From positions 1 through 64,000 of the forward strand of contig MGUU01000005.1 in the NCBI GenBank assembly GCA_001800135.1: DNA of 64,000 nt, read 5' to 3'. Made by a program: the position numbers and the translations under genes. The stretch is from Elusimicrobia bacterium RIFCSPLOWO2_02_FULL_39_32 (GTDB taxonomy: Bacteria; Elusimicrobiota; Elusimicrobia; 2-02-FULL-39-32). The notes below the pieces were generated by a model. That model was not told the DNA's origin, did not search any database, and worked only from the letters and a program-made list of their open reading frames with translations. This document shows, in pieces, positions 23,748-50,700 of the stretch; positions within the stretch are counted from its first letter, which is position 1, and every line of letters starts with the position of its first letter.

Positions 23748-23756
23748 TTGAGCTTA

Positions 23757-26700: not shown

Positions 26701-29700
26701 CCTACCCATCAGAAGAGGAAAAAGATTTATGGAAAGAGAAAGGAACTCTTGTCATTTTCGGGAGCCCTCTCACATCAAACTACCGTTATGAATTCAAGAG
26801 GAGGGATGTAACTGTAACAAGCGATAAAGATTTTGCGTTCGCCCAAAACGCTCTTAAAAACCACTATGCATGGAGAATATTTTTTGAAAATGCCCTTGGA
26901 ATCGCTACCGATAGAAAGCTGGATGCTGGATACCTCATCAACAAAGAATCTTCCTTATTTCGGGAAGCAGAAGCTTTTGTGGAAAAGCATTCTCCGGATC
27001 CTACAAAACCCAGAATACTATTTAATGGTATGGGAGGTGAGTTTAAAAGAAAAGGGTTCGAAAGTGCTGAGCTGCTAGCTGAATTTATCTCTTCATTGGT
27101 TGAAAAAACTAATGGCTATGTTTTTGTTGTTCTCAATGACAGAACCAATCAAGAGTTGTTAGATAATTTGAGAGATCATCTTAAATCCAATTTACGTTTA
27201 AAAGCAGGACAGGCAGTTCTTCTTCCGCCTACACTAGAGGATAAATACCTTTCCAAGCATGTAGCTGCCCTTGTAGATATGGGGGTTACCGTTGAAGGCG
27301 GGATGATGCATTTGCTTTATGCTTTAGGGAAACCATTTGTTTCGCTTCATAATTTACCTCAACCTTTTACCTTCGGTATTTATGGCTATTATCCAGTTTC
27401 CGGCAGTGTGGAGGCTTATTTCCCGCTTGAGTACGATAAACGTACGCAAGCGCCAATTGAATTAGAAAAATCTTTTGGCTATCTGCCCGGAGAAAATGAT
27501 GAAATGAACCAAATTCTTGGCAAGGTTCAAGACATTCTTTCCATCGTACGTCAAGGTGTTCTCAAACAGCCCGACGCGATAGAGGTTGGGGATAAATCTT
27601 TCAAAAATCCTCCCACTAAACAATCAGGATTTACAACCACAGAAGCGGTTGGTTTTGCGACGATATTGATGGTTTTTGCCGCGTTGGTTCCTGTGGTGTT
27701 ATGTACGGTTAATTTTCCTTTCTATGTTTTAGGCAGCGGGATTTTATTGATTGGCCTTAAAGTATTTTTAGCAAGATTAAGCATGCACAGGAAGATTTAC
27801 GTTCACATGATCCAATTCCTTCATGGGAACTCTCTGGCTAACGTCCAAAATCTCAATCCCGAAAAGTTTTCCATTCTTGCCAATATCTACCAAAATTCCA
27901 TCTTTCAATTTAAGAGTCTCTTTAACCTTTCCAGTTTGAAATTGAATATACAACGCATCCGCATTTTGATCAAATTTTATATCCATAATTTATTCCTAAA
28001 TCTACCATCCGAACCACTAAATGTCAAGGAATGGCAAAAATCCACTCGCAACCTTTCACTCATCTTCAAATGGATTCTTAGGGTACCTAAGTTTGTCATT
28101 GCGCATCCAATGATGATTGCTTTCTTAATGCTAGGAGTTCATTGGATTATCCAAAACTTAAGTGGTGGTGAGCATACGGTGCAAATGTTGGGAACTGCAA
28201 TGCCATTTGTAGGAGGTCTCCTGCCGCAGCCAAGAGGGAAGAACCATTTATTCGCTGTAAAGGATTGGGATGAAGAAAGAAAAGCTGACTTTGTGAACCT
28301 GCTATTCTATAACTCAAATATTAAAAGAAGAATTGAAGAAGGATTAAAAGAAGGTGATTTTATAACCCTTAAAGATATTGGAGTTCATGCGATCCGCAAT
28401 CATGTGGCCGATATCAGCGATAGAGACATTAAACGGTGGATCGAAGAATGTAATCGTCGAGCAATTCAATCCTTTCGTGAGGGAAAAGAATCAGGTTCAA
28501 GTTGGATCGTCACGGCAGGTGAGATATTGGTTGCTGCCATTGAACATAGAGCAAAAGCGATAGAGGGCGCATTGGTCACAGCCATTTATTGGCAAGCATT
28601 AAATTATAATGAACCCCGACTTGCTGGAAAAATTGCGATTGCAGAACTCAAAAAAGGGATGAATGGTTCCAGCATTCATCGTTTGGAGACAGCGGTTAAT
28701 CATGCCTTTGGCAGGCATGCCCCAAAAGCAATTCGCACAATTGTTAAGCTTGCCATTGAAAATGATCTCCTTGATCTCAAAGTTAGGAAAATAAAGCAAT
28801 GGATACGAGCTCTTCAAAAATATCGGCATTATCTTGAAGCAGCGGAAATTGCAGTTGCACTAAGATCAAAGAAAAAAAGAAGCATCGAAGATACTAGAAT
28901 TAAAGAACTATTTGATCAATCCCTCAAGAAGGGACCTCACTTTTATAAGGATTCAGGACAAATCTTAAAACTGATGATGGAAAATGATGTCCATGGTATA
29001 AACGCAAATGATGTAAATAATTTTATTCTCTCTTCTTTTTTGGCTAGAGAATATTTCATAGCGGCTGAGGTCGCGATCTCTGCAATGCAACATGGTTTTG
29101 CAGAAAAATTTAGTGTTGATGTCATTAAAGATTCAGTTCAGCGACTGCAAGCAGAAGGCGGCAAGATATATGCCAGGGAGATAGTCCTAAAGGCGATAGA
29201 GGCTGGGATTGAAGAAACTGGTTTTAGTCTGCGAAGTCTCAAAGGGAGTATTGATGATGATTTGGATTATGGCAGAGATATAGATAATGCATGGCAAAGG
29301 GTTGTTGATCTTTTAAGGATGAAAAGAAAACTAGAAGGAGTGGATATCAATGATGCACACCGTTGGTTTGACGGATTTTTGGATGAAACATCTGTATATT
29401 CGGAGTCTATTGCACTCGGCGCAATAGAAAATAATATTGAGGGATTAAAACCAAATGATATTAAGATATGGATTGCCAAGTTAATTGCGCGTGGAAGATT
29501 AAGTGAGGCAGCAAGGATTGCTGCAGTTGCCTATCCGCTGATTTTTTCTTCTCAGAATAACAATCAGCTTATACCCACGATCCAAAATTCCTTCCGATTG
29601 CTCAGCCGATATCACTTATTGCCCATCAGCCAATTTCCAGAGATCATAAAAATGATAATTGCTTCCGGTCCTGAAGAATTTAACAAAAAGATACAGGAAC

Positions 29701-32700
29701 TGGAAAACCTTAAATCTGCGTTTAAAGAGGCAAATAAGAAACTGCCGAGGACGAGGCGCCATAACCAAAAAAAGTTTGAAGAAGAATATTCCGCCTCTCT
29801 TTATGCCTTAGAGATTTTGTTACCAGGCTCCCTCCGCCATTTAAAAGGTCTTTTGCACCAAAGTTCAAACCCTCAGGGTTCAATACGTTTTCTGGAATCA
29901 AAGAAAGAGGCTCTCCTAAATGAGCCTGTTTTCCAGTCACTAAAAAAATTAATTGATGAGTTGAATAGTCAAAAGGAGGGATCGAGGAAAAAAATCTCCA
30001 TAGATCAAAGCGCGATCTTCAAAATTATAGATATTGCCAATAGTTACGTGAACACAGGCAAAAAAAATGAATTTATCAATCAAATGAATGGGTACAGCAA
30101 GGATACCCCAATATCCGATCTAATCAAAGAACTGTCAAAAGGACTCCTAACCCCCCTTGCGGAATCTTTTGGCATAGATAAAGTAACGATTAGTCCCGAA
30201 GCGTATAAGAAAATATATTTTCCTTTTCTTAGCCGTCTTAATCAAGCAAAAAATAACATTGAGCATTCATCCCCGCATCGTTTCCCTGCATTTAAAGGAT
30301 TAATTAAAGCAATCCTTGAAGATCGGTTTTGGGGCTACATTGAAGATGAAAACCAAAATGACGCAACCGGCAGAAAAATTGCAAATCACAATAAAAATGT
30401 GAGGGGTCTTCTGGAAAAAACCGGAATCAATGTCTCAAGATGGTTAGGCAAAACTCCTCAAGAAAGGCAAGAGTCGGGTGAGATATTTTATGTTCCAAGC
30501 GGCATTACAAAACATGATCCCGTATCAGAGATTGAGAGTGTAATTGACTACCTACAAAGGACTCTTAAGTTAGGGTTACAAATAGAACACAGACAAGGGA
30601 TGGAAGCATTTCTTCAAGAGTCGGGGTTATCTGTAGAAAATAAAAAAGAACTTGTGCTTCAATTATCAAAACCCACTACCTTAACAAAGCTATTGCAGCT
30701 AACTCATCGCATTCTTTCCTTTGAAGAGGTTCAAGGGAATATTTTATATTACGAAACAGTTAATCACTTTAAAGAGCGTGTGGATGTTCTTAAAGCGCGT
30801 CTCAGCGCTACCGAATATCGCCAAGCATTAAGCCAAGGGAAACACTTCACGGTCCGACCTATTTTTAGAAATCCAGGGAATGACCTTTTTATGGGAGACT
30901 TTACAAGCTGCTGTCTAGCAATGAACTCCAGTCTATATCCCCATGCTATGGTCGAGCGACTAATTGATGAGGGGATGAATGTTATTGAGGTCGTGGACGA
31001 CTTAACTGGTAAACCGATAGCAAACCTCTGGCTTTATATTGCGGAAGATGGGAGTTTAGTAATCCAGAATATGGAAATTAACTCTGAATATGAAAAGCAG
31101 AGTCAACATCTGACGTTTGCAATCGGTCAAGGGATGATTAACTATGCGGCCGAATTCGCAAAACAGTTTAGAGCTAAAAGATTGTTGATTGGTCAGGTAG
31201 AACATGGAAAATATTTTACCAACGGCTTTGTGCGGAAAAGGTATGGAGAGCGAGTTGTACCCTTTGAATTAGGCAAGATAGGCGGCAGTTATGATGGTAA
31301 AAAATATTATCTCGATTCTGAACAAAAAGAGTCCGCTTACTTAGTGGAAGATTTTAGATCTGTATCCTCACCGAGTCTAAAACGTTCAATCCGCAAAACA
31401 GTAGTTTCCATTCCCAAAGGAAAATATTTCAAACAAGCGGGAATGTCGAATATAGAAACTGCAGGTCTAGGCATGGCTTTGATTTGGGTTGCTCTGGGGT
31501 TAGTTGCAGCAATGTTAGCCGGCGGGGCGAGTTTGATCGCAGTTCTCCTTGTTGCAGGCGGGCTAGTGACCGCATTCATCTCACTAAAAAATAGAAGTTC
31601 AAAAAAAATATCTTTGGCGAATCGTGGTTTAGAAATTTACGTTGATGGGATGGTCAATCATCTTTTGAATAGTAAAACTCCAGAATTCATGGCATCTAAC
31701 TATATTGCTGGTTTTATAAAAATCAGCGATGTGGATGAAAGTTTTGACTATGGCGACAGCTTGATTGGAAAAATTGAACAAGCCAAAACTCACTTAAAGA
31801 TAGCTACTGAAGATCCACTTGCCAGAAAACGAGTTGAAATTGCGTTAGAACTATTAGCTAAACACCCGCTTGCAAAAGAGCTGTCCGTTTTACAGTTTGA
31901 AGGTATTGCCAATGGGTTGGTCAAACATTTTAGCGGAAATGATCATGCCTACAAACCTTATAAAGAAAATTTGGATCATGCAGTAGAAAAACTGTATGAA
32001 CCAATGCGTCAAGAAGTTTTAAAACTCGTTCAAAAGCCTGAAGAGAAAGGGCTTACTGAAGAAAGAATAGAAGCTTTGCGGATGGCGATGGTCTCGGCAG
32101 GCATTATGAATTTGTTTGACCATACCCGCATGCAGCCGTTAGAAGATTTTGCAAACTCTTTAGGAATTGTCTTTGATTGGAAAGATCCCAACAGTTTCAA
32201 TCGCTTAGAACCTGTGATCAAAGAAATGGTCCTAAAAACCAAAGTTCAAGGACCCATTGTAGATGAGTTTGAACAATTCATCGCTACTCTTAGAAAAAAT
32301 CCTCAAGGAAGAATAATCTATTTTTTAGATAATCATGGGGAAGCTATCTTTGACCAGCTACCAATTGAACAACTCTTGCTTGCTGGATATAGCGTAACAG
32401 TTGTTGCCCGAGGCGAAGTGGTTCGAGATGACATAACCGAAGAAGAAGCAAGGGAAATGATAAAGAGGAACCCGGTCCTTGCTCCCTACCTAGAAAACAA
32501 ATCATTGTTAGTAACAACAGATGGCAGCTTTCTATTAGGAGCTGACCTGTCTCAAAGCTCTCAACATCCCGAATTCTTGGAAGCATGGGGCGAAGCAATC
32601 GCTTATATTGCGAAGGGCGCTGGAAATTTCCATACGCTTTACACTCAAAATTTATCCATTCCCGGATTCCATATCCTGATGTCTAAAAAAATTGGAACTG

Positions 32701-35700
32701 TGATTAAAAAATTAAATGAGGTTAAGGGAACGGACATCTCATTTAATACAAACCGTCTTATATTCGCTTATCAAAAAGTCCAGTATCCTCTACATTTAGC
32801 CTCAACGGATCAACCAGCGGATGATGATATTAGACATCAACCCGGGCAGAAACCAATCGGGAATTTTGAGGATGTGAAAGAATTGTGGGGCAAGATCGTT
32901 GATTTATATGGGAAGGAAAATTTAACTCATCTTGTGGCAGTGAAAACAGATGATATTTTAAGTAAGCCTATTGAAAAACAGTATGCATTTGGCGCTCCGC
33001 ATACCATACGTTTGGGAGAGGCATGCAGAATAGAAAGAGGGGATGCCTCGGGGTATCCCAACCCTCCGGAAAAACAGGAGATTCACTTACAGCTTAGAAT
33101 GGTTCAGAAAAGATACGAAGGAATAAAAATAAATTTTCAATTGTATATTGATGCTCTGCCCAATGGGGTTAAAGTTGCGAAAGTTGGAGTTACACAAATT
33201 CCTGAACACGAAACCAGACCTGTGTCGGGAAAAAGCTCTTTGCATTTAGCGCTAGAGTACGCGAAAAAAATGATTGGAATCGGAAAAAATTCCGAAGCCG
33301 CCTCCACACTTTCAGAACTTCTCTTAGATTTTTCCGGTTATTTGGTTAAGCTTGGAGGGACTGGGGACATGCAAAGAGATTTCGTGCCCAAGTGGGACGA
33401 GCGCTTTGGGGTACTAAGCCGCGTTCCCATACCAGATCTTCGCGATATTCTTGAGGAAGCCGGGGCGCTTTTAAAGTCCATTGAAAAAAAACAAAGTTTA
33501 AAAAAATTCATTGTTTCCGTTTATGCGCGGCACGTTATGCAGATGATGATGAAAAAGTTAAGCACTGAGGAACTGCAGACCGTAATTGATGCTTACTTTG
33601 ATTCCTCTGGACTTTACATGGGGGAATCCATGATGCTGATTTTTGAAGAAATGAGAGCGGACTATTCAGTACGTTTATTTGAAACGTTAGAAAAATCAAT
33701 GTCAAAAAAATCAGACCGGCCAGACCAATTCGTGTCCCCCCACAGCCATTATCGAGAAAAATATAAGGAGCTGGCAAATCGCTATCCAGAAATCCCCTTC
33801 TTTCCTTATCATGTGAACCTTCCGCTCAATTTGAAATGGGAAGATTTTGAATTTAAATTAGCGACTTTCATTCGACTGGGCGGCGGGGTTAGACTGTTGA
33901 TGGAAGCTAAGGAAATAAAAGAGTTGGGCGGGGCAATGCCGGATGCTGAAAAGACCAATGAAGAACTGAAACAGGAATTAAAACAGTTGGGGCTTGAATT
34001 TTTGGCAAGAGAATTTATAGACCCCGATGAAGAAAATATGAACTTTTACAATAGTTTTAAAGCAGAAAGGAAAATTTTTGAACCTTTAGAAGAAAAAGGA
34101 GAAATTTCAATTGGGGAAGCGAGGTATGAATGGGCCGCGGAAGGAGGGATTCAATGGAAAGGAGGGCGTTTATCCAGCAGGGTAAGCCAAGAAAGAGAAT
34201 TTCTTAAAATTCTAGGATTGCAATATACGGATATTGAGATTGCCGATGCTCTGGCGCGATATGCGGAAACCCTTCAGCAAAAACAAGCAGATTCAAAATC
34301 TTTACCCGGAGATGGTGTCGTGGAAGCCCATATTCTTCAAATAGTGATTGATTATATAAAAGAGCTGGATTTGCACTATCCCAATGAGGAAACTTGGGAG
34401 ATTATTGCTTTTCAGATGCACTCCTATGAATTCTGGCTGAATTATATAAGAGCCATTTATCGGAACAAAAACATGGATATTTCCGAACACGCGCTTTATA
34501 AGACAGCAGCGCTAGCATTGCTGTATGTTTTAGAAGCAGAACATAAAATAAATACTTTTACGAATGAAATCAAGCTCAATTCACTTGTAGATAGATTTAA
34601 GGGTGGAGATCAATTAGAAGAGGGCAGCGATCCTAGTTCGTTTGTAAAAGCATTTTTGGGCGGAGATGAGCTAAAATCCATCTTCCAGTGGAACCGAAAA
34701 GCGTATCAGGAATTGATGTTGTTATCGCTTCGTAATGACCCAAATTTAAGAACAGTTTATGATCGCTTATTCTCGGCAAAAGCATTTTCCCCAGATAGAA
34801 AAATTATTTTCAAACAGATTCTGGATAAATTAGAAAGTAACGAAGGTCCAATAGGTGACCAACCCGGGGCCATTGGGATTTGGCCGTTTAAAAATTTGGT
34901 TTTGATTGGATTTGTGGAAGGGGTGATTATCGTTGGGTTTTCACTTTTAACATTGATGGGGTTCATGCCGCACGCCCCTCCTGTATTTTTAGAAAATATA
35001 GATATCTTTTCTCTTGGTCTCTTTGTTGCCGCACTTCTAGTATGGTATCCCCTCTTAGTCCGCCTCCATTATTATTTTGGTATTCGTCAATTGAACGGAA
35101 AAATTTTAATTTCTAGGACAATTTTTGAAAAAAGAAAAAATTGGCTTATCTTTAGAATCAAACCATCTGCTGAAGAGCACTTTCATATAGTTGAAGATGA
35201 GAATGAATACCTAAACAATGCAAAAAAAGCTGCAAGCACAGCGCTCTTTAGTTTAATACCTATACTTATTTTTCCATTCGCCCTACAAAGTTTACCTGGA
35301 GTCAATCCCTATTTTATGACTGCGGTTGGAGCTATCCTTGGTGGAATCTTCCATGCCGCTCGGAACTCCCCTGCGCTGCATAGCGTAAAACTGGATACGG
35401 ATATAGACCGCATTGTTCAAGAAGAAATCGTCCATATTTTTAATGTAACTGGGGCTCCAGAACTTAAAAAGAAAATCAAACTGGTTATTATGAAAAACGT
35501 CTTTGATCCAATAATTTTATTATTTTTTGCAGATAGGATTCTTTCTGTTAGGATTCCTCCTTACATAGCTCTTTTAGCCATGGCGCTATATTCAGGGTTC
35601 CCTGTAAATCTCGCGCTTCCCCTTGCTCGTATTTTAATCTTTATTGCAGTCATTCAAGGACTATTTGAGACTTTACATTGGATAAAAAATTTTTATGGGA

Positions 35701-38700
35701 CAATATCCCCGCTCACAAAGACGATATATATACTTGGCTGGAAAGTAAGGGATGAAAAAGATTTTAGAACTCTGCTCTCCCACGAATTGACCCATTACAG
35801 ATACCCCGGGAAATTATTAGATCGTGGGACTAGATCCACTGGATATTTGGCATCCTTTTTTGAAACTGTTCGGAAAAGTGAACTGAACACTGCTAATGAT
35901 GACCCTGAAGATATTAACGAATTAGCAAAAAGGTTTGCAAGAACACATTTAGAAATGTACGGCGCAGCCGCTTTGCCTTTGCCCGGTCTTGCTTCAAGAT
36001 TCATGAAGCTGGCGAAAAAGCGAGCGGGCTTGGTACACAATATCGTTGGAGCGCTAAAGGCGGAGCCAGAATTCAGTTATCTTTATGGTGAGCTTCTAGC
36101 TTACGCTGCTTTGGAACTATTGGAAGGAGATCACCAAAAAGCATATCAAGTCGGTAACCTGCTGGCTCAGAAAGTAGAATTCGAAGATGCTGTCCGTTTG
36201 GTGGCAGGCAAAAAAATAGCTGACTCTCCAATTGGCTTGAGCGCCTCAGATTATTCTGCACCCAAAACTCTAACTACCACTGAACGAGAATATTTCAACA
36301 GCATCAGTTTAGAATCGCATTTGTGCGTTCTATTGAGCCGCACGGGTGTGTTTATGGAAAACAATATTTTTAATCCTGGACTAGCGGATCATGCCATCAT
36401 TGGCTCGTTTACGGATAAAGAGTTCGGCATTTTTATTCTTAAGACCGAATGGCAAGATGGATCGTCCAAAATCAAAAAAGAAATATTTAATTTTATTGGG
36501 ATACGTTTGGATACCGGGGAACCCATTTCAACCGCCAAAATTATTAAAGATGGATCGGATTATATTGTGGACAACGCTATTGTGTTGGATGGTTATGACT
36601 TTATGGAACAAAGAATTGCCGCGATGCTTCAAGCAGGAAGGATCATTGAATGGCGTTCAAGACCCATGGCTCAATTTACCGTTCGGGAAAAAGCGCTGTA
36701 TGATAAACTAACGGAAAATCATACTGTAGAGCGAACCGCAGGCGAAAAATCGGTGATGAAAGTTTCCTTGCTTCCACTGCAACAAATCGTTTTTGCTCTT
36801 GCCCAACCATCTAGACTTTCAAAAATCTTACCGTTGGAAGTGTCTATCGCCAACGATAGCTCTTCAGAAAACTACCCATGGGCACAGGACTATTGCCAAA
36901 CTCTGATTGCAAACATTCAAAAAGTGCTTCCCAAGGAGTTTGCTCCTTACTCTGGAGATATACCAAAACTTATCGAAGAAAAACAAACAGGCATGCTGCT
37001 AGGAGAGAGGGATCAATTCGTTCAACTAGTACCCTTATCGCAGAGTGGGGAATCGCAGTTAGGCGCACTCCCATCCATGATCCCTCGGAAAGTAATTATA
37101 GATGCTTTAGCTGAAGCATTTATGAGTGCGCCATTGTGGGCTCCGCATGGAGTTGAAGAAGGCCTATCTGGAAATGAATCAAATTTATATGGAAGGCTCT
37201 TAATAGCCCAGATTGAATTACTTCGCAAATTGTTGCCCGACATCACTGATCAGGAAATCATTCAAATAATTGGAGAGGATAATTTCGTGGCATACTTCAC
37301 GTTAACTCACCCAGTTAATTGGGATACATATTCTGAGGATATTTTACCTCCCCAACCCGGGGCCATGGGGATTTGGAAAACGTGGTTTGGAATAAAAAAT
37401 ATTGCGGTGATCAATCTGCTTGAAAGTTTTTTGTTCGGAGGCATTTTCTTCTGGCGGACGGAGAGTGTTTATGAATCCATGATGAAAATGATGGAAAATT
37501 ATTTAAGTCAGCCGGATTACTATACAACTACGGTTGTTTGGTCATCGGTGATTTCTGCCTTGAGCGTTCTCCCCATTGCTCTTCTTATTCTATTTTTAGG
37601 ACATTTCTTCTCTGGAATTGTTCAAGAAAACGGCATGTTGTTGCGATGGAAAAAGTTGGGCGGGAATGTAGAACTAAAAACCGATTTAAAAATAGCTCTC
37701 AAAGCGTCTGTAAAGGCAACCATTCGAGGCAGTTGGTCCATGATTCTTGTAATACCCATCGCTTTATTCCTTAACATTCTCTCTCCTTTGGGACCTTTGA
37801 AAATAAAAATGGCGATCGCCTTGGGTTTATTCAATGGCGTTTTCTTGCTATCGCAATTAGGGAAATTTTTTTCGCAGGCATCAATTGTACTGAAAAATAT
37901 GGAACACCATTTTGAAAAAATGGATGAAATCCTAACCTCTTACGATGAGGAAAAAAAAGGAGATGGCTTCCCTCACGCTGGATCTCAAGATACCCCTATT
38001 CTTGAGAAACCGAAGGATGCAACACCTATAGTATTGGCAGAAGATGAAGGGAAGATTTCTACCCCATCCGCTGCAGAATCTGCTGCAAAACCGGAATCCG
38101 AAGTTGAGGATTCAGCAGAAACTGTTTCAGAAAAAACAGCGATTCATAAAGCCCTAGAAATGGTGGAGAGTATGATTAACCATGGTCTATACGATTCGGC
38201 TTATCACTTGCTGACAGAGTTGTTAAACGATATCGCTGCAGTTGTCAAAAGACATCTTGATCTCAATACATTCACAAGGAAGTGGGATGGCAGGTTTGGA
38301 ATGACGAATGGCCCTAAAATTTTATTTAACCAATTGGATGGAGTTACAAGGAAAATAGGAGAGTTCCATGGAAGAATTATACAGGCTAGCAGGTCAGCTC
38401 CTGAACCAATACGCATTAGGATAAACATGATGGATTCTGATAAAGGATATAAAGGATATTTAAGTGCGGAAGAGACATGGAAAAAAATTCTAGAGCTCCG
38501 CAAAGAGAATAAAATTTTGTTTTGTATGACCCTGCTTTCTGAAAAGGATGTGGCGAAACCCATTGAAGATTACAGCGATGCAACTGATTTTGAATCTATA
38601 GGAATGGTGGGGATTGTAAGGGCGATTGATGAGGATATTGCAAGCCATTCATATTTAAGCGTGGATGGCAATGTTCACCCAATGCTGACCCAGCTTCAGC

Positions 38701-41700
38701 ATGAGCGTTATACAAAATTTCAAAATAAAGGAATCAGTTCCGAAATGTTTAAACTCAGAGCCGAGTTTCATATTTACGTGGATGAAGTTGAAAAAATTGC
38801 AAAAATAGTTTTGGTTGATCCGGATGATTCAGAATCTAATCTCCCCCCTTCTGGCCCAAAACCTACAAATCAATCTGGTTTTACTTTGCTTGAAGGTGTA
38901 CTAATCGGCTTATCGCTGTTTGGGTTAGGAACCATTGCTTACTCCATTTACCATGGATGGAGTTGGGGCGGGATTATTTTAAGCGCTCTTGCGGTTTTGC
39001 CGGTTGGAGGTATTCTTTTAGGTAAGTTTTATGATTTGTTTATGAAATCACTTGAAGGCGATGCTTTGGAAGGATATTTTTCTGTAATAAAAGGCAAAAA
39101 AAATACTCTGAATGATAGGGATAGGAAAGGAGAAATTAAATTCCAAAATGTAGGAGCCGACACTTTTTACATTATTGGTTCACGATTATACTACTTAGCC
39201 CAAAACTTCGAAGAGGCGAATCAATCTGGCGGATTCTTTGATGAATTGAAACTTTCTTCGCGAGACCGCGCTATTGTATTGAAACTGTATTATGATGAAC
39301 AAGGTTTGCCATTAAGCGATAAAACACGGGTGCATGACATTATGATGGCATTCCAGAATATATGGCGTTCAGGGAACAGAAATTTTAAGGTTCTTTCAGC
39401 AGAAGCTGTAATTCGTTTAATTGCAGAATATGTTCCAGAGATTAAAATTAACGACGCCGAAAAATCAGAGGGCGCCAAAAATACAAAAAAACTTGGGGAC
39501 GCTAAAGCTACAAAACCAGGCATTGCTCCTTTTTTAAGATCTGTAACTTCCAGACTATACAGAAAAGGAAATATCGAAATCCAAACAGAAATTGATCCTA
39601 TTGAACCATTGCCCCGCCAGTTTGATGATAATCCATTGCGTTCTGATATTCTAGAGGATGATAAGAAAACTGATAGAGACAATGGTCTCGCATCCACCAA
39701 AGATGAGTGGGCGATAGAAAAATGGGGAGAGGATTCGTGGCAGTATTATCTCTACACAACTGTAGGAGTGAACTTGGAGGTGGTGTATCAACTGCCAGTA
39801 CTTTTGGCGGTGTGGTTTAATTTAGATGTGCCTGTGGTAGTGGCAGTAACGGTCGCTTCGGCTTTTGTGTTTAGCGGCGCGCACAAAGGGAGGGGAGTTA
39901 CATATAGGGAATGGTTTGGCTCAGATAAAGGAAAGAAATTATTTTTCTGGGGCTTAGTTCTTGCAGGAGTTTTGGTCACTCCTGCATTTTTATTTTCTGT
40001 AGGGTTGGGAACCGCTGCAACTGGCTTAGGATATTATTGTTTGACTCACACTTCCCACAACGGCGCGATTCTTTTGGCAAGGAGGTATGTAAACAAAAAG
40101 TTAGACATAAGTAATCTGCGTCTGGATAGACTATTCTCTCCTAAATTCCTGCCGCAGGTAGTTGAGCTATTCCAAGATAGAAATTTGCATTGGCTTGAAT
40201 TGAGCTGGTTTTTCAGGCTTGCCTTTTGGCTTTCCCAATCTCCCCTTGCCTCGGTTGAGGAAAAAGGTGAACTATCCTTTATTGAAAAACTTAAAAAAGT
40301 AAATCTTCTTTATAGTATTCCAGAAATGTCAGCTTTATCGAATGTGCCCAAATCTACTCTGGGGAATATTTTATTAAATGGAGCCATCCCGACTCCTAAA
40401 AATTTAGAAAAGCTTCAGGGTCTTGTAAGTGAGATTGAACAAAAATACGATTTGCGCTTATTGCCCGATCGAAAGACTATGTTCGCAACACTAAAGGCTG
40501 TTGCAGAAAAGAACGGCAGAGACGTTACTGCGCGCGAATCCGGCATCCCTTACAACGCTATTTGGCAAATACTTAACGGTGATTTTCAGATGAGTCCTCG
40601 TGTGTATCGGCAATTTTATGATTTTATGATTGCCAGAGTGAACGATCGCTTTGAAATTCAATTAGAGTCTGATTTGTCCCCTAAATTGAGCGCGGATGCA
40701 ATTCTAGAAAAATTGGGGGTTGATTTAAGCGATCCCATAGACTCAGAAAGTAAACTGAGAAATATGTCTAAAGTATTTGAGAATCTTCTAAAGGATAAAG
40801 AAACGAATAAACACGCAATTGTAAAGTTGTTATCTATGATTACCAGGGATGGAAAACAATTCTTTCAAGGGTATTCAATAGAATCAATTTTGTCTTTGTC
40901 CGCAGCCAAGTTTATGAGCAAGTTCGAGATTTTGCTTTACCTTTACTCCTATAAAGATAACGGGGATTTTATTTTCAATGGAGGGGCTATTAGCGGAATC
41001 TTGCGCACCACTCGAACTTTAGAGGATATAAAAAATTTTATATTGCTTCTAAATAGAAAAGAAATTCGGAACGGGAATCACATTGCTCAAATTTTAAAAA
41101 GCAGTAAAAGTTTGGTTGATGCAGAACAATTTATTAATTATCTGCAAATTTTAGGTATAAAAAGCAGCGGTGATATTAGCGGGATCATCCATTCCAAAAG
41201 GAAGTTGAGAGAAGTAATCGAATTTATAAACCATCTTCGCGGCATAGGAATCCAATCTCCCCAACACCTTAGTCATATCATTGGGAGCAGTAAGAGCTTA
41301 GAGGATGTTAGCGCATTCATCGCCTACCTTATTGGAATTGAGGTTACCGGAGAGACAACGATCTGCACAATTGTGCGCAGCTCTCTTCGTTTGGACCAGG
41401 CGCAAATGTTAAGAACAAATATTGACAAGATCGGGCTGGATGGAATTCGAAAAAAATATGAAAGAGAAAATCAAGGGCAATTGAATTTTTACAAAGATGT
41501 TTTTGGAGATGGTTTAGATAAGCTGCCTTTGGCAGTCCTTTATTTTTTGTTGCCGGCAGAACTTAAAATGGATAAACGATTTAGGTGGAACAAACTTTCA
41601 TTTCCTTATTCGGATGCTCAGGTTCTGGCCACAATTTCCCTGAATGAAGATAGGACAAAAATTTTGGTTGGTTCAAAGGAATATGATCTGCCGCGCTACC

Positions 41701-44700
41701 ATGGATATAGCGGAATCCAAGATTTTTTTAAACAGTTAAGGGCAGACCATCTCTTTTCATCCAAAAGAAGCGTTCCTTGGCACTACATCATTCCAATCCC
41801 TTCTGATGTCCGCATCGAGATGGGCTGGTATTATCACCCTCTTATTTTATCAATGGATTCCCATGTTCGCGGAGAAGATCCTGGTTATACGGGTCATGAC
41901 ATTTTAGGCGATGAAGACGATTTAGAAACTAAAATAATTCTTAATCAAATCAAGGAGATTCTTGGGTCAGAGGGTTATGAAAAATTTTTATCATTAACAG
42001 AGAATACAAATCGGTCCACCAACGAAAAATCTGAATACAAAAAAATGCTCAAACAGGTTCAAAAAAGGATGGGATTAGAGAGTGAATCAGGAAGCATAGA
42101 CCCTGAACAAGATTTGGATACGGATGATGAGGAAATTGAAGAAACAGAAAATGGGAATACTCCCGCCTCCATTCTTGGAGCAAAGTGGGCGCATCTAGCG
42201 GGTGAGTTAGAATGGGCATTTTCAGTTCCATTCTTAATCATGGGCGCTAAGACCATTCTGCGGTGGGAAGCGGATCGGCTGATTGGTGAAGGAAAAGCAG
42301 ATACAAGTTTGTTGGATGATCTGGATAAACTAGAACCCATGGGTGCGGTTTCTTGGTTCACTGGAGCATTTGGTTCTATATCTTTAACTGCATGGATGGT
42401 CTATTCCATGATTTCCGGTGTGTGGTGGGATGGTGGAATAGCAGTTGGAATCTGGCTTTTAGCAAGTGGGATTGTATTTTCGCGAGAACATCCAAAATAT
42501 AAAAAAGATGGAAAGAAGCTTAACTATTTTGACAGAGCCATCCTAACAATAGTAGGAGCAATATTCGCCGCAGTAACTGTATCTCCAGCTGTTGTGTTCT
42601 CTATAGCGATCTCTATTCTTGGAATCCCTTTACTTTTGGCAGTCGTTGCTGGAATATTGTTTATTGAACCTTTCCGAAAACTAGCGCTTACCTATTTTGA
42701 GTTGGGGATCAAGGGAAGCATAAAACTACACAATTTTTATAATAACCGCATCTCACCCAAACTGGGTCTTATCCCTGCTTCGGTTTTACCTACCGGCGAT
42801 GAAGACGATACGGATCAAAAGTTCGATCAGTATCTAGCCCAAAATAATCTATCTGAATATAAAGCTCTCAAACAATCCTTTTCATCTGAAATTAAAAAAG
42901 CATTGTTAGAAGATTCTGCTTTAAAGCCGGTATTCTTGGTGCACGAACCGCCAGCTGAAATTATGAAGATAGAAAAGTATATGGGGCCGATTGAAGTTTT
43001 GCGCGAGAACGCTGTGGCGCAGATCGGAGGCGAGGAAATTCTGCACCGGACAAGCGGCTACTTCGCAGGCAGCGCCGAGGTGGCAAATTTAATGGCAGAA
43101 AATGGATACGTTATTGTTGCTGGAATGACAGACAAAGGGTATCCCGGGGAAAAAGATATTGCGAATGGTCGGCAATGCTACTTTCCTTCAGAAGATGGAA
43201 CATGGTTGTCTTTGAAAGGAAGCGGGAATTTTAGTCACGAAGATAAACCGTACGAATTTTATCCGGAGCATGGGAGCTATCGAGGGGTTGTTATTGGTAA
43301 AGAGCTGGGTTTTGCAGAAAAAGGAACTGCCGCAGTTGCCAAAGCAGGCGCTGGGAATTTGTTCCCTCTATTGCTTGCTGTAAGGCAACTGTACGCTCTA
43401 CCTGATGGCAAAGGGAATCTGGTAAAAATAGATTCTATTGAAGAGATTAAAGCGAACGGAATCACCCCGCGTCTTCTATTCAATCGGTTTATTACGCCGC
43501 ACCGCTTTTCAAAACTTGCTCAGCTGCTTCAAACAGACCCCGGTTTGCATAAACTTAAGGCAAGAATTTCCAGTACACTCGTGAACCTTGGCGAGGAACC
43601 TATTCGTTCGTCAGAAGAACTTTTGACTAGAGCGATGTATAAACTAGGCAAATTTGAAGCCTTCAAGCAGAATGCCGGATGGTTTAAAAAAACCCTGCAC
43701 GATCAGGATTTTACATTGGCGGGCGAAGAGGCGGACAACGAGGAATTTATTTCCGCAAAGGACTATATTGAGCGTTACTTAGAAGACCCATTTGAGAACG
43801 CAACTTATATGAGTGAAAACAAAAATCTTTTAGTGGATCATGGATTAAGTTTTTCGGGCTTGCACTCAAAAATTGCCGCTTGCGGATATGCGGCCAAACA
43901 TTTAATCAATCTCTATTTTGATGACACCCCAAAAGTGACTTTACCAGAGTTTTTGCTCTCACTGTTTTCTGGATACTTCGATCAGTTGGATGATAAATAC
44001 CTTGATTTATGGGTAGAACAATCGAAGATGGGAGAAAATGGGGACTTGTTTAAACTTCTTCAAATGACGGTTTCTGACAGCGTTAAACAAAGTAACAGCG
44101 CCGCTGATTCGAACGAGCTGGTTCAATCTATTTTTGCCTTAGCCATAGAAAAAGTGAGAGAGAAAACCGTCGCAGTCCTAGTTAAACAACTTAAAACGAT
44201 TGGGGATAAGGAAAAAAAAGATAAAAAAGAAGAGAAAAAGGAGATCAAAACTCACATAAGCGAAATATTGTTATTTGTTCAAAAACACAGAGAAGAAATA
44301 GAAAAAGACAAAAACTGGGGGCGGGAATGGATATTGGGCAAAATCAAAATTATAGAAGAATTAATACAAAACACTGTATCAAAGTACGATATTGATAATA
44401 AGAGAAAAACTAAAAATGAAATCACCCAACTAAAGATCTTTTGGCAATCAAAATACTGGCTGGCAAATAATGAGGTGACATTGGAAAGAGTTTGTTCTTT
44501 AGATAGTTTGATGGATCAAATTATTTCTGACTCTCTCAGCGTAGGGAATAAATATAAAGCAGAAAAAACGAATCTGTCAAAAGAGATGGAAGAAAGCCTT
44601 GCTGCCTTGTTTCAAATTGTAAAAGTGGATTTGGCAAACTCTAAAATTAGAGATCCAGCGGTTTTCGGAAGCACAGCAGAAGCTGCTGCCAAAGCTCGTA

Positions 44701-47700
44701 TTGAAATGTTTTATCGTCTAAATAAAGAGACACGGAAATTTCTCTTATCAGCTTTAGGAAGTCCCTATGTTCTCTTTTTTGGAGGGAAGTCGCAGCTCAT
44801 TGCTAAAGTTATTAAAAGCATTGATTTGCTTTATCGGGACATGGGGCGCTTTTCTGCAATGATTAAAGACTGGGTTCTGAATATTGCCTCAAATTTTGAA
44901 ACATTAAATGAAGTAGCGTGGGATAGAGATAAGAAGGTGTCGCACGATTTCGATTCCTCCGCCTCTATCACAGATGCGCTGCGTTTATATCAAAATCTGC
45001 TTGACAATAACCCTATCTTATCCTTGCCATTTGTGGGACATGCAATGGCAATAAAAAATGTTGTCAATCCTGATAACCATTTACAGGTTGGTCTCTATGG
45101 CGGCGCAGGGGCAGATATTTCTTCCTTTTTATTGGCAACGAATATAACTCAAGCCTATTTTGTTGAACAATATAAAGTAGATGCTCGTAAATTGCTTCAT
45201 CTAATAGATAATCATTGGGAATTTCTCTCATTTCTTTTATCAAAAGATGAGTATGCTCGTCAGAAAAAATTTTATAGTTTTGGAGCGCATATGGATATTC
45301 ATCAAAGTTCAATGGTCGTGGATGGAATAGAAATTGATCTCAATGTGCGGATTGTGCAGGAATTGATTGCAATGAAAATTGATAAAAAAACTATTTTTAT
45401 AAGCGAAGAAAATGGGAATACAAAAATCAGTTTTGAATGGAAATATCCGGGAACTCAAGAGACAAAAATCTACAACATTACCTATATTCAAGAAGATATA
45501 AAAACGATTGGACAACAAAAATTTGAAAAGCAAAATCCTTTCTTAGATCGCCTGCTTAAAGAGGGAATTGACCTTTATTACCAGCGCGCTCCCTCAACAA
45601 TTCCAAAATTTTACGAACAATTTATGGGGAGGATAGGATCATCTTTAAAACCAGGGGGCTTTGCTATTACGGATGATTTTATGGAGTTGGTTCTGAATAA
45701 TCCCACCCAATATTTAGAGTCAGAAGGCTCTATGTTTGGCCCTCCGATTTATTCCTACATGATGCGCTGGTGGGAATCCTTAATCCCTTTTAGTCCAGAC
45801 ACTTGGCCTTATGGCTGGTATCTTTCGATCCGACAAAAGATAAGAGTAGCTACAAGCTCTGAAGAGACCTTAGGAGCTGTGATGGTTTGGGCTTGGAAGC
45901 TGATCTTATTTTTGAGCCAATGGGCGCATTCAAGACTTAATTTTGTCCCGCTTCTTAAAAAAGAAAAATATAGTCTTGCAATGTATCGTAAAACTACAGC
46001 CTGGTGGTTAGAAAATATAATCTCACTTGTTGCTAGCGGATTCTCAACTGGGCTGCCGGTTTATCTTTTAACTGGAGAGCTCCACTTGGCAGCGGCTGCT
46101 ACCTTTAATTTTGTCTGGCCCATCTTTACACTCCTACATTTCCCTAATTTTATCGGCTCTTATGGATCACGAGATCCGCCTTTGCTCTATTTTGCAGCTG
46201 CGGGATTTTTAAGTTTTACAGGACTAGTCTTTGGATTTTCACCCTTTGATATTCAAGGGATAGTTTTCCACCTACTTATCAATTTTTCTCTTCCTTTCAT
46301 TACAGATTTTTCATTAAAAGTCCGATTCAAAAAAGTTTTAGAGGATAATTATGAGATTGGAAAAGTTAGAAAAATAGAACTCATTGGGAAAGGCACATAT
46401 ACAACCGCATATCAAGTTATAACTGACCATTCAAAATTTATTCTCCGATTAAATCAAGATAAGAAACCAGCAATTCTCTTTGAAACTCAATTAAGAAATA
46501 TTGCTGAACCAAATAGCCAAATTCCAAATTTTATTTTAACTAGAAATAGGAATAGCTCTGTTCAGTTTAGAAAACAAACCTTAACTCTTACCACTTTCCT
46601 TGATGGGATACGTGTCTCATGGAACGAAATTAATAATAATAGACTAAAAAATGCAGCATTACGATTGGCTGAATTCCACAAAATGTTCAAAGGCGCTATT
46701 GATTCATTCTCTATTGATCCACGCCGATTTGATTCTATTCCTGTCATTGATCTTGCAAATCTCGATCAAAGAGATCAGAGCGCAGAAAAAAAATTCGAAC
46801 GATTTTATGATTCACTGCCGTCCATTCTGCCAGTTGCAAGCTACTTCCACAATCATTATGAATTCTATATCGCTCAAATCAGGAAACTGAAAGAGAACAC
46901 TGCTGGAAAAATTGAACATCTTCCTCAAACAGTTTTTCACGGAGATTTCGCTGCATGCAATTTACTTTTCAAGGGAGATGATGTAAACGCGGTAATAGAT
47001 TTTGGCAACTCCAATATAGGCCCTCGAATTCTTGATTTTGCTAATCCCATTGTGCAGCAAGATGGCCAGTTAGATTGGCAGCGCTTTAAAGAATTTATCT
47101 CTGTCTATCAGTCGGTTGCAGAGGAACCATTGACTAGAGAGGAATTGGAACTTCTTCCTGAAATGTTTCGCCGCCAAATCTTACAGCAGATATTGTCTCT
47201 ATCTACTGTTATAAGGAATGGAAAAATTCGTAACTGGATCAATATGAAACGATGTCTGGTAAGCAATACTGAATTGCTCAAAAAATTAGAAACTCTTCCA
47301 TGGAATGAGCTAATGGCGGAAATCACAAATTTAAGTCCTACAATTCAGAATATCTCCTCTGCTAGAACCGATAAGGATAAGGCAAAAATTGGCAATCCTT
47401 CAGCCTCCATCCTTGGCGCAAAGTGGGCGAAGGTGGCAGGGATGCTTGAATGGGCGCTTGCTGTGCCAGCGCTGGCGTTAGCTGGAAAAGTAATCATTAA
47501 AGGAATGGCATGGGTTTTGGTGAAGGCGGGGCTGGCGGATGAGGAATTGCTAAAAGATGTGAGGGACGAATCCAAACTAAAACCAATGGATGCGTTTTCT
47601 AAGCTATTAATTATAGCGGGTTCGGTTTCAATGATTTTCTGGTTCGCATCAGCGATGATCTCAGGAATTTGGTGGCACGCGTATGTTTCGATAGGGATAT

Positions 47701-50700
47701 GGATGTTCTTTAGCGGGATTGTTTTCTCCAGAGAACATCCAGAAGTTCAAGAAGATGGGAAGGTATTAACCTATTTTGATCGCCTTATTTTGTTTGTTGT
47801 AGGCGCACTCTTAGCAGGAGTTACAGTGACTCCTGCTATTTTTGTTTTGATGGGAAGCCCGATTGCAAATTTGGAGGGTGTGACGCACTTATTGCAGGCG
47901 GCTGGACTTGGGTTAGTTCTAAATATTCTGCTGCATAAAACTTACAATGACACTATTCTTGCTGCGAGATGGTATGTAAATAAAGTCGAATCTGGTTTTG
48001 ATGCTAGATCGCCCCGAGAACTAATGCCAATTATGGCTGCGGCGGCCCTTGGTGTTTCTTCCTCACACGGTATTGTTCCCACTCAAATAAACCAAGAATT
48101 ACCAAGGCTAAGATCGAAAGAGTTATTACGGCTGTCATTTTATTCCTCCTCTGGGCAAATGAGAACACCCAATACAAAAAAGAGAATCCCAAGTATTATC
48201 ACACCAATCTTCAAAATCTTAGGAAGCTCTCTAAACACATCAGCTATTAAAAACGAAGAAAGCGCAACCGCTGACAGATTCATTGCCCATGATGATATTA
48301 GCTTTCTACGTCCTCTAGTGAAAAAACTCTCTAGCATGCCACTGATTATAACAGATACCCTGCTAAACCTCAACGCCGCTCTTTTTTACCATCTCATGCT
48401 TTGGATTTCAAAACTTCCTCTAGCTACCATTCCCCAGCTTAAACCAGAGGATGAAGATGCAAAAAAAATCGTTGAACTTGAAATAACAAGATTGAGATTT
48501 GAAAAAGCCCATCTGCTTTATCCTTTAAGTTACTTTTCTGATCGTTTGGGTATTAGCATTACTCAGATTCACCGCTTTTTGCATCGCCAAAGAAGCCTTA
48601 GTAAAGAAAAGTATGCTGAACTTATAATCCTGCTCGCAGAACTGGATAAGAGATATGATCTCAATTCCCTCCCTGACCATCCAACCCTTCTTGCAAAACT
48701 AAAGAAAACTGTGCTTGTTTATACTCATGCGGAAATCGCAAAAAGAAGCGGAATTGAAAGCGAGGGAACTATTTCCTTAATTCTTTCTGAAGCCCAAGGA
48801 TTTGGGCATGAAACTTACCGCAAGTTAGTTCCTTTTATAAGAGAAGTGGAACAACAATATCATCTGGATTCTTTACCGTATCACGAAATTATGATCGCAT
48901 TGCTTATAAAGGTTGTTAAAAATTATTCTTTAGGGATAGTTGCCAAGGAATCAAAAGTGAACAAATCAACGATTGCTAAACTTGTGTCTGGCGAGCACAA
49001 AGGCATGATCCAAAAAACATATCTCAAACTACTCTCATTTTTTGAACGAGTGAATGACCATTCTGAAATTGTTTCTCTACTACAAAACCAAAGGCAGCAG
49101 CATCCCCGAGCCTTAGATCATAAGTTTAATCAATATCTTATCCAAAACGATTTATCGCAATACAGCACACTAAAAACATCCTTTACTCCTGAAATAAAAA
49201 AAGTATTGCTGGAAAATCCAACCTTGCGTCCAGTATTTTTAGTATCCCTATCAGAAGAAAAAAAACAGGTGGGTCAACTAGAAGTTGTGGATCAAAAAGT
49301 ATTAGATCAGGTTGGCAAGGACGAACACCTTTCCAAATATCCGGACTTATTGAATAATGACTTCGATGATATGCGCGAAAAAATTTTGGAACGAGCCGGT
49401 GAAGATTTACTGGATGAATATACAGGATTTTTAGCTGGCTCTTTAGAGGTCGCAAATCGCATGGCGTTAGAGGGTCACAAAATGATCATAGGAGTTACAG
49501 ATCGGCCATACAATAATAATATGGGAATGGATTTCAATGTTGCCAATGGAAGACAAGTTTATTTCCCTTTAAAGGATGGAACCTGGCTGGGAGTAAAAGG
49601 AATAGGACAATTGATTGAAGAGGATCATGTTCCCTATGACCCGATGCATCATCGAGGCGTTCAATTTGGACTTGTGATTAAGATTGAAGTGGATCAAGCA
49701 GTAAAAGGATATTTAAAAATTAAAGAAAGCAGCGGAAGGTTTGCGCAGTTCTTAGGTTACAGGAGGCTTTATTCTGTGCCAAATGGTCATGGCGGTTTTA
49801 TAAGCACCTCAAAATTAAAAGACAGCGATGAAGAACTAATCCAACCTGTTTTGGTTTTTAACCGAGTTTTAACCCCGCATCGTTTAGGTAAACTTAATCA
49901 ATTACTGCAATCAGATCCAGAACTTCTAAATTTTAGAACCAGAGCTTCTAAAATTGCGGCAGCTGGTTTTACTCCGCCAAATAGAATTCTATCCAGCTCT
50001 GAATTCATGAATATGATTTTCTCTGAACTAGGCCGTTCTGAAGCGGTTAAACAGAATCATGGTTTATTTAAACAAACAATACACATACAAGATTTCACAT
50101 TATTTGGCGAAGAATCGGACAATGAGGAATTTTTCAACAAAGAAGAATATTTATCCTATTTAAATATTGACGGATGGGGTGGCAGAGAGAGTTTTTCTCT
50201 TTTTACAGAACAGGGGATCGGGGTTCAAGGAATAGAAAATAAGATGGTGGCCCTTGGCCGAATATTGACAAGATTAGAACCTACGGATTTAAAAATTTTA
50301 TTTCCTTCCCCTTCTCAAACTCTGGAAGTACTGTTCCAAAGTTACTTCAGTAATTTAGAAGAACCCTATTTAAAAGTTTGGGCAGAAAAACTCCCCAAAT
50401 CAAAAAGAGATTCTGTTCATCCCGCAGGATGGATACTGGATATTTCTAAACGAGGACTTGCTCTAATTCTAGCATTCAAAGAAATTGCGCCGCAGGATGA
50501 TTTTCTTTCAAACCCAACACAGTTAAGAGATAAAATCATTTATAAAATAATCGGTTGGGCTAGAGCAGAAGTTAAAGAGAGACGAAAAACCAATAAAATC
50601 ATAAATCGGTTGCTGAAGCGTTATACCAAAGCATCTCTTCCCCCTGCTTCTATCGCGGCAGATCCGGAAAATTATAAGGTTGGACCAAGCTGGTACAAAG

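What the first reader, a model, noticed from the sequence alone, without database searches (positions are those of the whole stretch)
48031..48373. Second, homologous antisense cassette 22 kb away (copy 2)
Seen: the same gene order, the same one-base stop-to-ATG gap, the same helix endings (LGILFFVLGVLICP against VGLIFFVIGVAVCP) and the same FEWE-x-Y plus basic tail recur on the minus strand. Two independent copies with peptide-level similarity but different DNA mean the antisense peptides have been under selection or spread as a unit. I know of no named family with this pair.
Basis: partly seen in the sequence, partly recalled or inferred. Interest (0 to 1): 0.88.

Follow-up and report, generated by a model that had tools for sequence, protein, structure and literature searches.

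The report
Membrane-microprotein operon antisense inside giant genes
A tiny two-gene unit with its own promoter, coding for two small membrane proteins, sits backwards inside bacterial giant genes again and again, always in the one reading frame that leaves the giant gene unbroken, so the same DNA appears to be kept as coding sequence on both strands.

Summary
On the minus strand at 48031-48373, inside a 9,925-codon sense ORF, lie a promoter, a 65-aa two-helix protein (p1) and, one base after its stop, a 35-aa single-helix protein with a basic tail (p2). I found 15 copies in 4 of the 9 held genomes of this GTDB family, all antisense inside giant or long ORFs. Fourteen were analysed; all lie in the same frame relative to the host ORF. 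Selection on the antisense peptides is supported: they align better than the sense translations, and p2 changes fall on the sense strand's second codon position. The sense frame stays open in 14/14 copies, although synonymous recoding keeps it open in only 3% on average. Free-standing relatives elsewhere in the phylum all have stops in that frame. So this is a small self-promoted operon, weakly DUF6722-like and intergenic elsewhere, that this family carries nested antisense in giant genes and that has adapted to be read through. The two copies are paralogues, not independent events; copy 1 has a broken p1. Expression, function and route of spread are unproven.

The parts
48345..48373 (-). sigma-70-type promoter of the cassette: -35 TTGAGG (48373-48368), 17-nt spacer, TG-extended -10 TATAAT (48350-48345)
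   Evidence: 10 of 12 consensus matches with TG before the -10; same layout in 12 of 14 copies
48140..48337 (-). p1: 65-aa protein, basic N-terminus, two transmembrane helices; ATG lies 7 nt after the -10 (near-leaderless mRNA inferred)
   Evidence: profile family of 15 members; AlphaFold2 helices 8-31 and 40-60, mean pLDDT 83; selection tests
48031..48138 (-). p2: 35-aa protein, one transmembrane helix, FEWEQY and basic tail; starts 1 nt after the p1 stop with GGAGG in the last p1 codons
   Evidence: same 1-nt gap in 13 of 14 copies; family search; substitution pattern
25963..26067 (-). p2 of copy 1, intact (MITVWILFAFVLGTLALFEWEMYQKKKKKQSSHS)
   Evidence: orthologue in the sister species
26069..26161 (-). 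p1 of copy 1, C-terminal remnant; the 5' half is cut off by a 1.85-kb segment (26161-28011) absent from the sister species
   Evidence: alignment with G001:C18:606992
27999..28027 (-). displaced 5' end of the copy-1 cassette: TTGACA-N17-TAGATT promoter-like sequence that now precedes the antisense DUF2283 ORF
   Evidence: homologous to the 5' end of the cassette in G001:C18
27777..27986 (-). second kind of antisense gene in the same giant ORF: DUF2283, 69 aa
   Evidence: PF10049, E=7.2e-16, above the curated cut-off; absent at this place in the sister species
40098..40218 (+). site without a cassette in this genome; the sister species has a cassette here (503 bp in place of 121 bp)
23748..53525 (+). 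host giant ORF, 9,925 codons, open through both cassettes
   Evidence: sense-type substitution pattern outside the cassettes

Best explanation
A compact two-gene operon lies nested antisense inside a giant gene. It has its own extended -10 sigma-70 promoter. It encodes p1, a two-helix membrane protein whose start codon lies where transcription should begin, and p2, a one-helix microprotein with a basic tail, translated from an SD at the end of p1. Elsewhere in the phylum the operon stands free between genes. In this family it has been taken into giant ORFs, where it moved or multiplied with giant-gene segments and adapted its codons so that the giant frame reads through it on the other strand. 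Shown by sequence: anatomy, recurrence, fixed frame, selection on the peptides, sense frame kept open, free-standing relatives. Inferred: that both strands are expressed, that p1 and p2 act together in the inner membrane, and that nesting couples the two genes. The giant mRNA is a perfect antisense to the cassette mRNA and the two RNA polymerases converge, so the peptides would be made mainly when the giant gene is silent. I put this regulatory coupling at about 0.35.
For: Exactly five p1 and five p2 places in the genome, always paired. Ten more cassettes in three other genomes of the family, all antisense inside long ORFs. Same relative frame in all 14 analysed, and it is the only open sense frame. 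Promoter with 17-nt spacer in 12/14, ATG exactly 7 nt after the -10 in most; the stringent promoter pattern hits only cassettes in G000 and G001. p2 changes fall at the sense second position in 37/64 cases against 127/598 in flanking sense coding, p=2.5e-9. Antisense similarity far above the sense-forced expectation. Sense frame open 14/14, mean 0.03 expected after synonymous recoding. Free-standing homologues 7/7 closed in that frame. Free-standing pairs in other families with the same gene layout, some with the same promoter layout.
Against: No RNA-seq, ribosome profiling or proteomics for these uncultured genomes. Several copies are damaged (C5 26k; G001 C34 lacks helix 1; G001 607k lacks an obvious start and promoter; G001 627k has a swapped p1), so individual copies are dispensable. 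Promoter matches are weak in the G004 copies. The 14 copies are related by descent and duplication, so the summed statistics are not independent trials. The link of free-standing pairs to p1 rests on low-identity short membrane proteins (18-27% to window p1).
Confidence: 0.78

Rival explanations
1. Selfish or passenger cassette: the operon gives the host nothing. It persists only where it does no harm, and giant ORFs tolerate antisense inserts that keep the sense frame open. It copies itself passively with giant-gene segmental duplications.
For: Patchy distribution (4 of 9 family genomes), multi-copy, damaged copies, site with and without cassette between sister species; shared flanks in the C16/G001-C21 copies; p1 exchange at one site with the old p2 left behind.
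Against: Both peptides are under purifying selection in most copies. No copy lies in an intergenic region in these genomes, although free-standing copies do elsewhere. No terminal repeats were seen.
Confidence: 0.3
2. Type-I-toxin-like addiction: p1 and/or p2 are toxic membrane peptides and the giant mRNA acts as the antisense RNA that silences them, so loss or silencing of the giant gene frees the toxin.
For: Small hydrophobic peptides with basic tails; perfect antisense to the host mRNA in every copy; multi-copy, patchy, degenerating distribution. Works like a type I system in logic only.
Against: Two conserved membrane ORFs rather than one; free-standing copies have no giant gene over them and no antisense RNA was identified; the toxin would be lost together with a deleted giant gene. 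No toxicity data.
Confidence: 0.15
3. Overprinting by the giant gene: the operon stayed in place and the giant ORF grew across it by fusing neighbouring genes and spacers, the sense frame being the newcomer.
For: The sense translation of the cassette shows little constraint beyond what the antisense forces; free-standing relatives are closed in that frame.
Against: Cassettes lie in many unrelated places in several giant genes, including a site that is empty in the sister species, which needs movement as well.
Confidence: 0.2
4. Sense-strand paralogy: repeated giant-protein domains force the likeness and the antisense ORFs are accidental.
For: The giant genes do contain repeated modules.
Against: Sense aligns worse than antisense; p2 substitutions spare the antisense second position (= sense third) and hit the sense second position; promoters, SD, starts and stops are conserved; free-standing homologues exist.
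Confidence: 0.02

Closest known systems
DUF6722 (Pfam PF20482)
   Same: Short (about 50-70 aa) two-helix membrane protein of unknown function; free-standing pairs in G021 align over the whole model (E=0.001 and 0.0033) and one swapped p1 weakly (E=0.031)
   Different: All scores (15-19.7 bits) are below the 27-bit cut-off; the giant-resident p1 proteins do not match; no paper in the open library mentions the family
Antisense-embedded (overlapping) genes of bacteria (review PMC7457138; E. coli O157:H7 cases PMC9927249)
   Same: A complete protein-coding gene on the opposite strand of an annotated gene, with its own promoter
   Different: Here it is a two-gene operon, in 15 copies, confined to giant genes in this family, in one fixed frame, with free-standing relatives and codon-level evidence on both strands
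Rickettsia palindromic elements (described in PMC10969869)
   Same: Repeated DNA inserted inside protein-coding genes so that the host frame stays open
   Different: RPEs are about 150-bp palindromes read as part of the host protein; here the unit is about 340 bp, has no terminal repeats, and carries a promoter and two genes on the other strand
Type I toxin-antitoxin systems (TisB, Hok, Ldr types; own knowledge)
   Same: Tiny membrane peptides opposed by a complementary RNA
   Different: Two ORFs per unit; the complementary RNA would be a protein-coding mRNA of 30-40 kb; toxicity not known
Giant genes/huge proteins of Elusimicrobiota and Omnitrophota (PMC11573180)
   Same: Host genes of this size are known from these phyla
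   Different: In the passages of that paper that I read, nested antisense operons are not mentioned; I searched only the open library

Membership tests
DUF6722 (PF20482) | HMM score at or above the gathering cut-off (27 bits) | tested here: not met
   Best 19.7 bits (free-standing G021), 15 bits (G001 swapped p1), none for the giant-resident p1; no genome over the cut-off
DUF6722 (PF20482) | Small protein with two transmembrane helices | tested here: met
   AlphaFold2 model of window p1: helices 8-31 and 40-60, mean pLDDT 83
Antisense-embedded protein-coding gene | ORF lies wholly inside a gene on the other strand | tested here: met
   All 15 copies
Antisense-embedded protein-coding gene | Selection on the antisense peptide beyond what the sense strand forces | tested here: met
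   Recoding test; substitution positions, p=2.5e-9
Antisense-embedded protein-coding gene | Transcribed and translated in the cell | not testable with these tools
   Only sequence: promoter, SD, start and stop codons
Type I toxin-antitoxin | Small hydrophobic toxin peptide | tested here: inconclusive
   Size and helices fit; toxicity unknown
Type I toxin-antitoxin | Antitoxin is an antisense RNA transcribed against the toxin mRNA | tested here: inconclusive
   The giant mRNA would be fully complementary; free-standing copies show no obvious antisense gene; expression not testable
Rickettsia palindromic element | Insertion that leaves the host frame open | tested here: met
   14/14 open
Rickettsia palindromic element | Palindromic, about 150 bp | tested here: not met
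   No terminal inverted repeat spanning the cassette

The most novel reading that the evidence does not exclude
Giant genes of this lineage carry resident antisense operons as a regular part of their make-up: the operon's membrane microproteins are produced only when the giant gene is not being transcribed, the giant mRNA being their antisense silencer, so that each such giant gene contains built-in sensors or guards of its own expression state, and both strands are kept coding by codon choice.
Probability: 0.25. Interest if true: 0.92.

Novelty: new variant of a known kind. Interest (0 to 1): 0.77.

Why it matters
Convincing antisense-nested genes in bacteria are few and usually single and young. 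Here there are 15 copies, free-standing relatives as outgroup, and a frame geometry in which the second codon position of one strand faces the third of the other, so selection on the two strands can be separated from sequence alone. It also shows that giant genes, whose function and upkeep are unclear, carry other genes inside them, and gives a direct hypothesis of convergent transcription to test.

Tried and rejected
Sense-paralogy explanation: rejected. Known families: Pfam, PHROGs and NCBIfam gave nothing above cut-off for p1 or p2; PADLOC was not searched. Phage and plasmid collections: no tblastn match. Hits of profile A1 in other families (f8, f10, f14; E 1e-6 to 1e-2) sit inside ORFs of mostly about 260-510 aa and match only part of p1; judged spurious and not counted. 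Profile A1 was too divergent for the search for related loci; a single-protein search of GTDB r220 contigs found only the sister genome JACPBF01 'Elusimicrobia bacterium'. Fold searches against PDB and viral models: nothing below E=1. Terminal repeats at the cassette: none. Promoter-pattern hits in G002 turned out to be promoters of other genes. A Pfam scan of all 35 antisense ORFs of 60 aa or more in the window's giant ORF found only the DUF2283 gene.

Full report
WHAT IS THERE. The window is part of contig C5 of a 2.52-Mb genome. The plus strand carries an ORF of 9,925 codons, 23748-53525. On the minus strand inside it, at 48031-48373, are, in order: TTGAGG-N17-TATAAT with TG before the -10 (48373-48345), 7 nt, ATG 48337 of p1 (65 aa), stop, one base, ATG 48138 of p2 (35 aa), stop at 48031. 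GGAGG in the last p1 codons is the presumed SD of p2. AlphaFold2 gives p1 as two long helices, mean pLDDT 83. p2 is one hydrophobic stretch with a basic tail.

HOW OFTEN. Independent searches of the own genome with p1 and p2 each return the same five paired places: two in this giant ORF and three in a second giant ORF on contig C16 of 13,470 codons. All five are antisense to the giant ORF. Profile searches of 341 genomes of the phylum find closely similar cassettes only in this GTDB family: G001 (same genus), G004 and G007, that is, with the window's own genome, 4 of 9 held genomes. Counting one with a swapped p1 there are 15 cassettes, all antisense inside giant ORFs or the long open frames of short contigs. 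G001 corresponds to JACPBF01, deposited as 'Elusimicrobia bacterium'.

FRAME. In 14 of 14 analysed copies p1 and p2 have the same frame relation to the host ORF, and that is the only sense frame without a stop. The gap between p1 and p2 is 1 nt in 13 copies and 7 nt in one, the same modulo 3. In p1 the two wobble positions face each other. In p2 the antisense third position faces the sense second position and the antisense second faces the sense third, which makes p2 a clean test of which strand is selected.

WHICH STRAND IS SELECTED. Among copies, p2 mismatch rates at antisense positions 1/2/3 are 0.44/0.35/0.57 and p1 rates 0.48/0.34/0.64: the pattern of antisense coding, with the sense second position the most variable in p2. 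Over close pairs 37 of 64 p2 changes fall on the sense second position, against 127 of 598 in flanking giant-gene DNA, where the sense pattern is normal (Fisher p=2.5e-9). Recoding tests: with the sense protein fixed, antisense identity is expected at 0.268 (p1) and 0.135 (p2), observed 0.364 and 0.437; with the antisense proteins fixed, sense identity is expected at 0.291 and 0.227, observed 0.319 and 0.271. So the antisense peptides carry the likeness and the sense strand mostly follows. The copies are related, so these values describe the family and are not independent trials.

BOTH STRANDS ARE KEPT OPEN. Synonymous recoding of p1 and p2 leaves the sense frame open in only 0.1-14% of trials per copy, mean 3%, yet 14 of 14 are open. 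In most copies the effect sits in p2, where codons ending in TA or TG, not TT or TC, precede A. Survivorship alone could select such copies, but seven free-standing relatives all have 1-6 stops in p2 in the same frame, so openness is particular to the giant-resident copies.

FREE-STANDING RELATIVES. The swapped p1 of G001 pointed weakly to DUF6722 (15 bits, cut-off 27). That family and a mixed profile led to intergenic pairs of a two-helix protein and a 30-36-aa one-helix protein in G021, G331, G335, G336 and G337. Gene distance is -4 to +4 nt where p1 comes first; in L125 and L127 p2 comes first. The G336 copy has TTGACA-N17-TATACT 10 nt before its ATG. Two free-standing copies are broken. 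The membership claim 'p1 is DUF6722' fails its cut-off; 'p1-p2 is a distant relative of the free-standing pair' rests on profile hits and shared layout. The strongest hits (G021, down to 1e-25) are inflated because two G021 sequences were in the profile; the hits in G331, G335, G336 and G337 (best per genome 2e-11 to 6e-6) were not in it.

HOW IT SPREADS. The three C16 copies and the G001 C21 copies share flanking sequence, so they multiplied by duplication of giant-gene segments. Flanks of the C5, C34, G004 and G007 copies are unrelated to those. A tree of p1+p2 separates the C5/C18 cassettes from the C16/C21 ones. No terminal repeats were seen. The route of movement is unknown.

MECHANISM. 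Shown by sequence: a self-promoted, two-gene operon nested antisense, with both reading directions kept intact. Inferred: transcription from the promoter with a start at or next to the p1 ATG (so p1 is read from a near-leaderless mRNA), coupled translation of p2, both peptides in the inner membrane. Inferred with lower probability (about 0.35): regulatory coupling by convergent transcription and complementarity, so that the peptides appear when the giant gene is silent. A toxin role is possible but has no direct support. A passenger role is the main rival and the damaged copies fit it.

NOVELTY. Antisense-embedded genes are an accepted though small class (PMC7457138, PMC9927249), in-frame insertion into ORFs is known from Rickettsia (PMC10969869), and huge proteins are enriched in Elusimicrobiota (PMC11573180). 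I found no description of a recurrent antisense operon tied to giant genes; subscription literature and preprints were not searchable.

Noticed in passing
window 27777-27986 (-), promoter-like 27999-28027: A DUF2283 gene (PF10049, E=7e-16) lies antisense inside the same giant ORF, just behind the displaced promoter end of the copy-1 cassette, on a 1.85-kb segment absent from the sister species. No usual partner gene was seen next to it.
   Followed up: partly
window 47812-47838 (+): A strong intrinsic-terminator-like hairpin (12 pairs, then TTTTTGTTTT) in the sense direction inside the giant ORF; it would stop giant-gene transcription if used.
   Followed up: no
Cassettes seem to be replaced or stacked at existing cassettes.
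   Followed up: partly
G001:C21 8989-9579 (L044): The giant ORF of the sister species is interrupted by frame changes where two cassettes stand in tandem; assembly error or real break not resolved.
   Followed up: no
G000:C5 75709-96591 (-): A third giant ORF of 6,960 codons on the same contig carries no cassette.
   Followed up: no
window 44748-50747 (+): The giant protein holds a phosphotransferase (APH, PF01636, E=8e-15) domain just upstream of copy 2.
   Followed up: no
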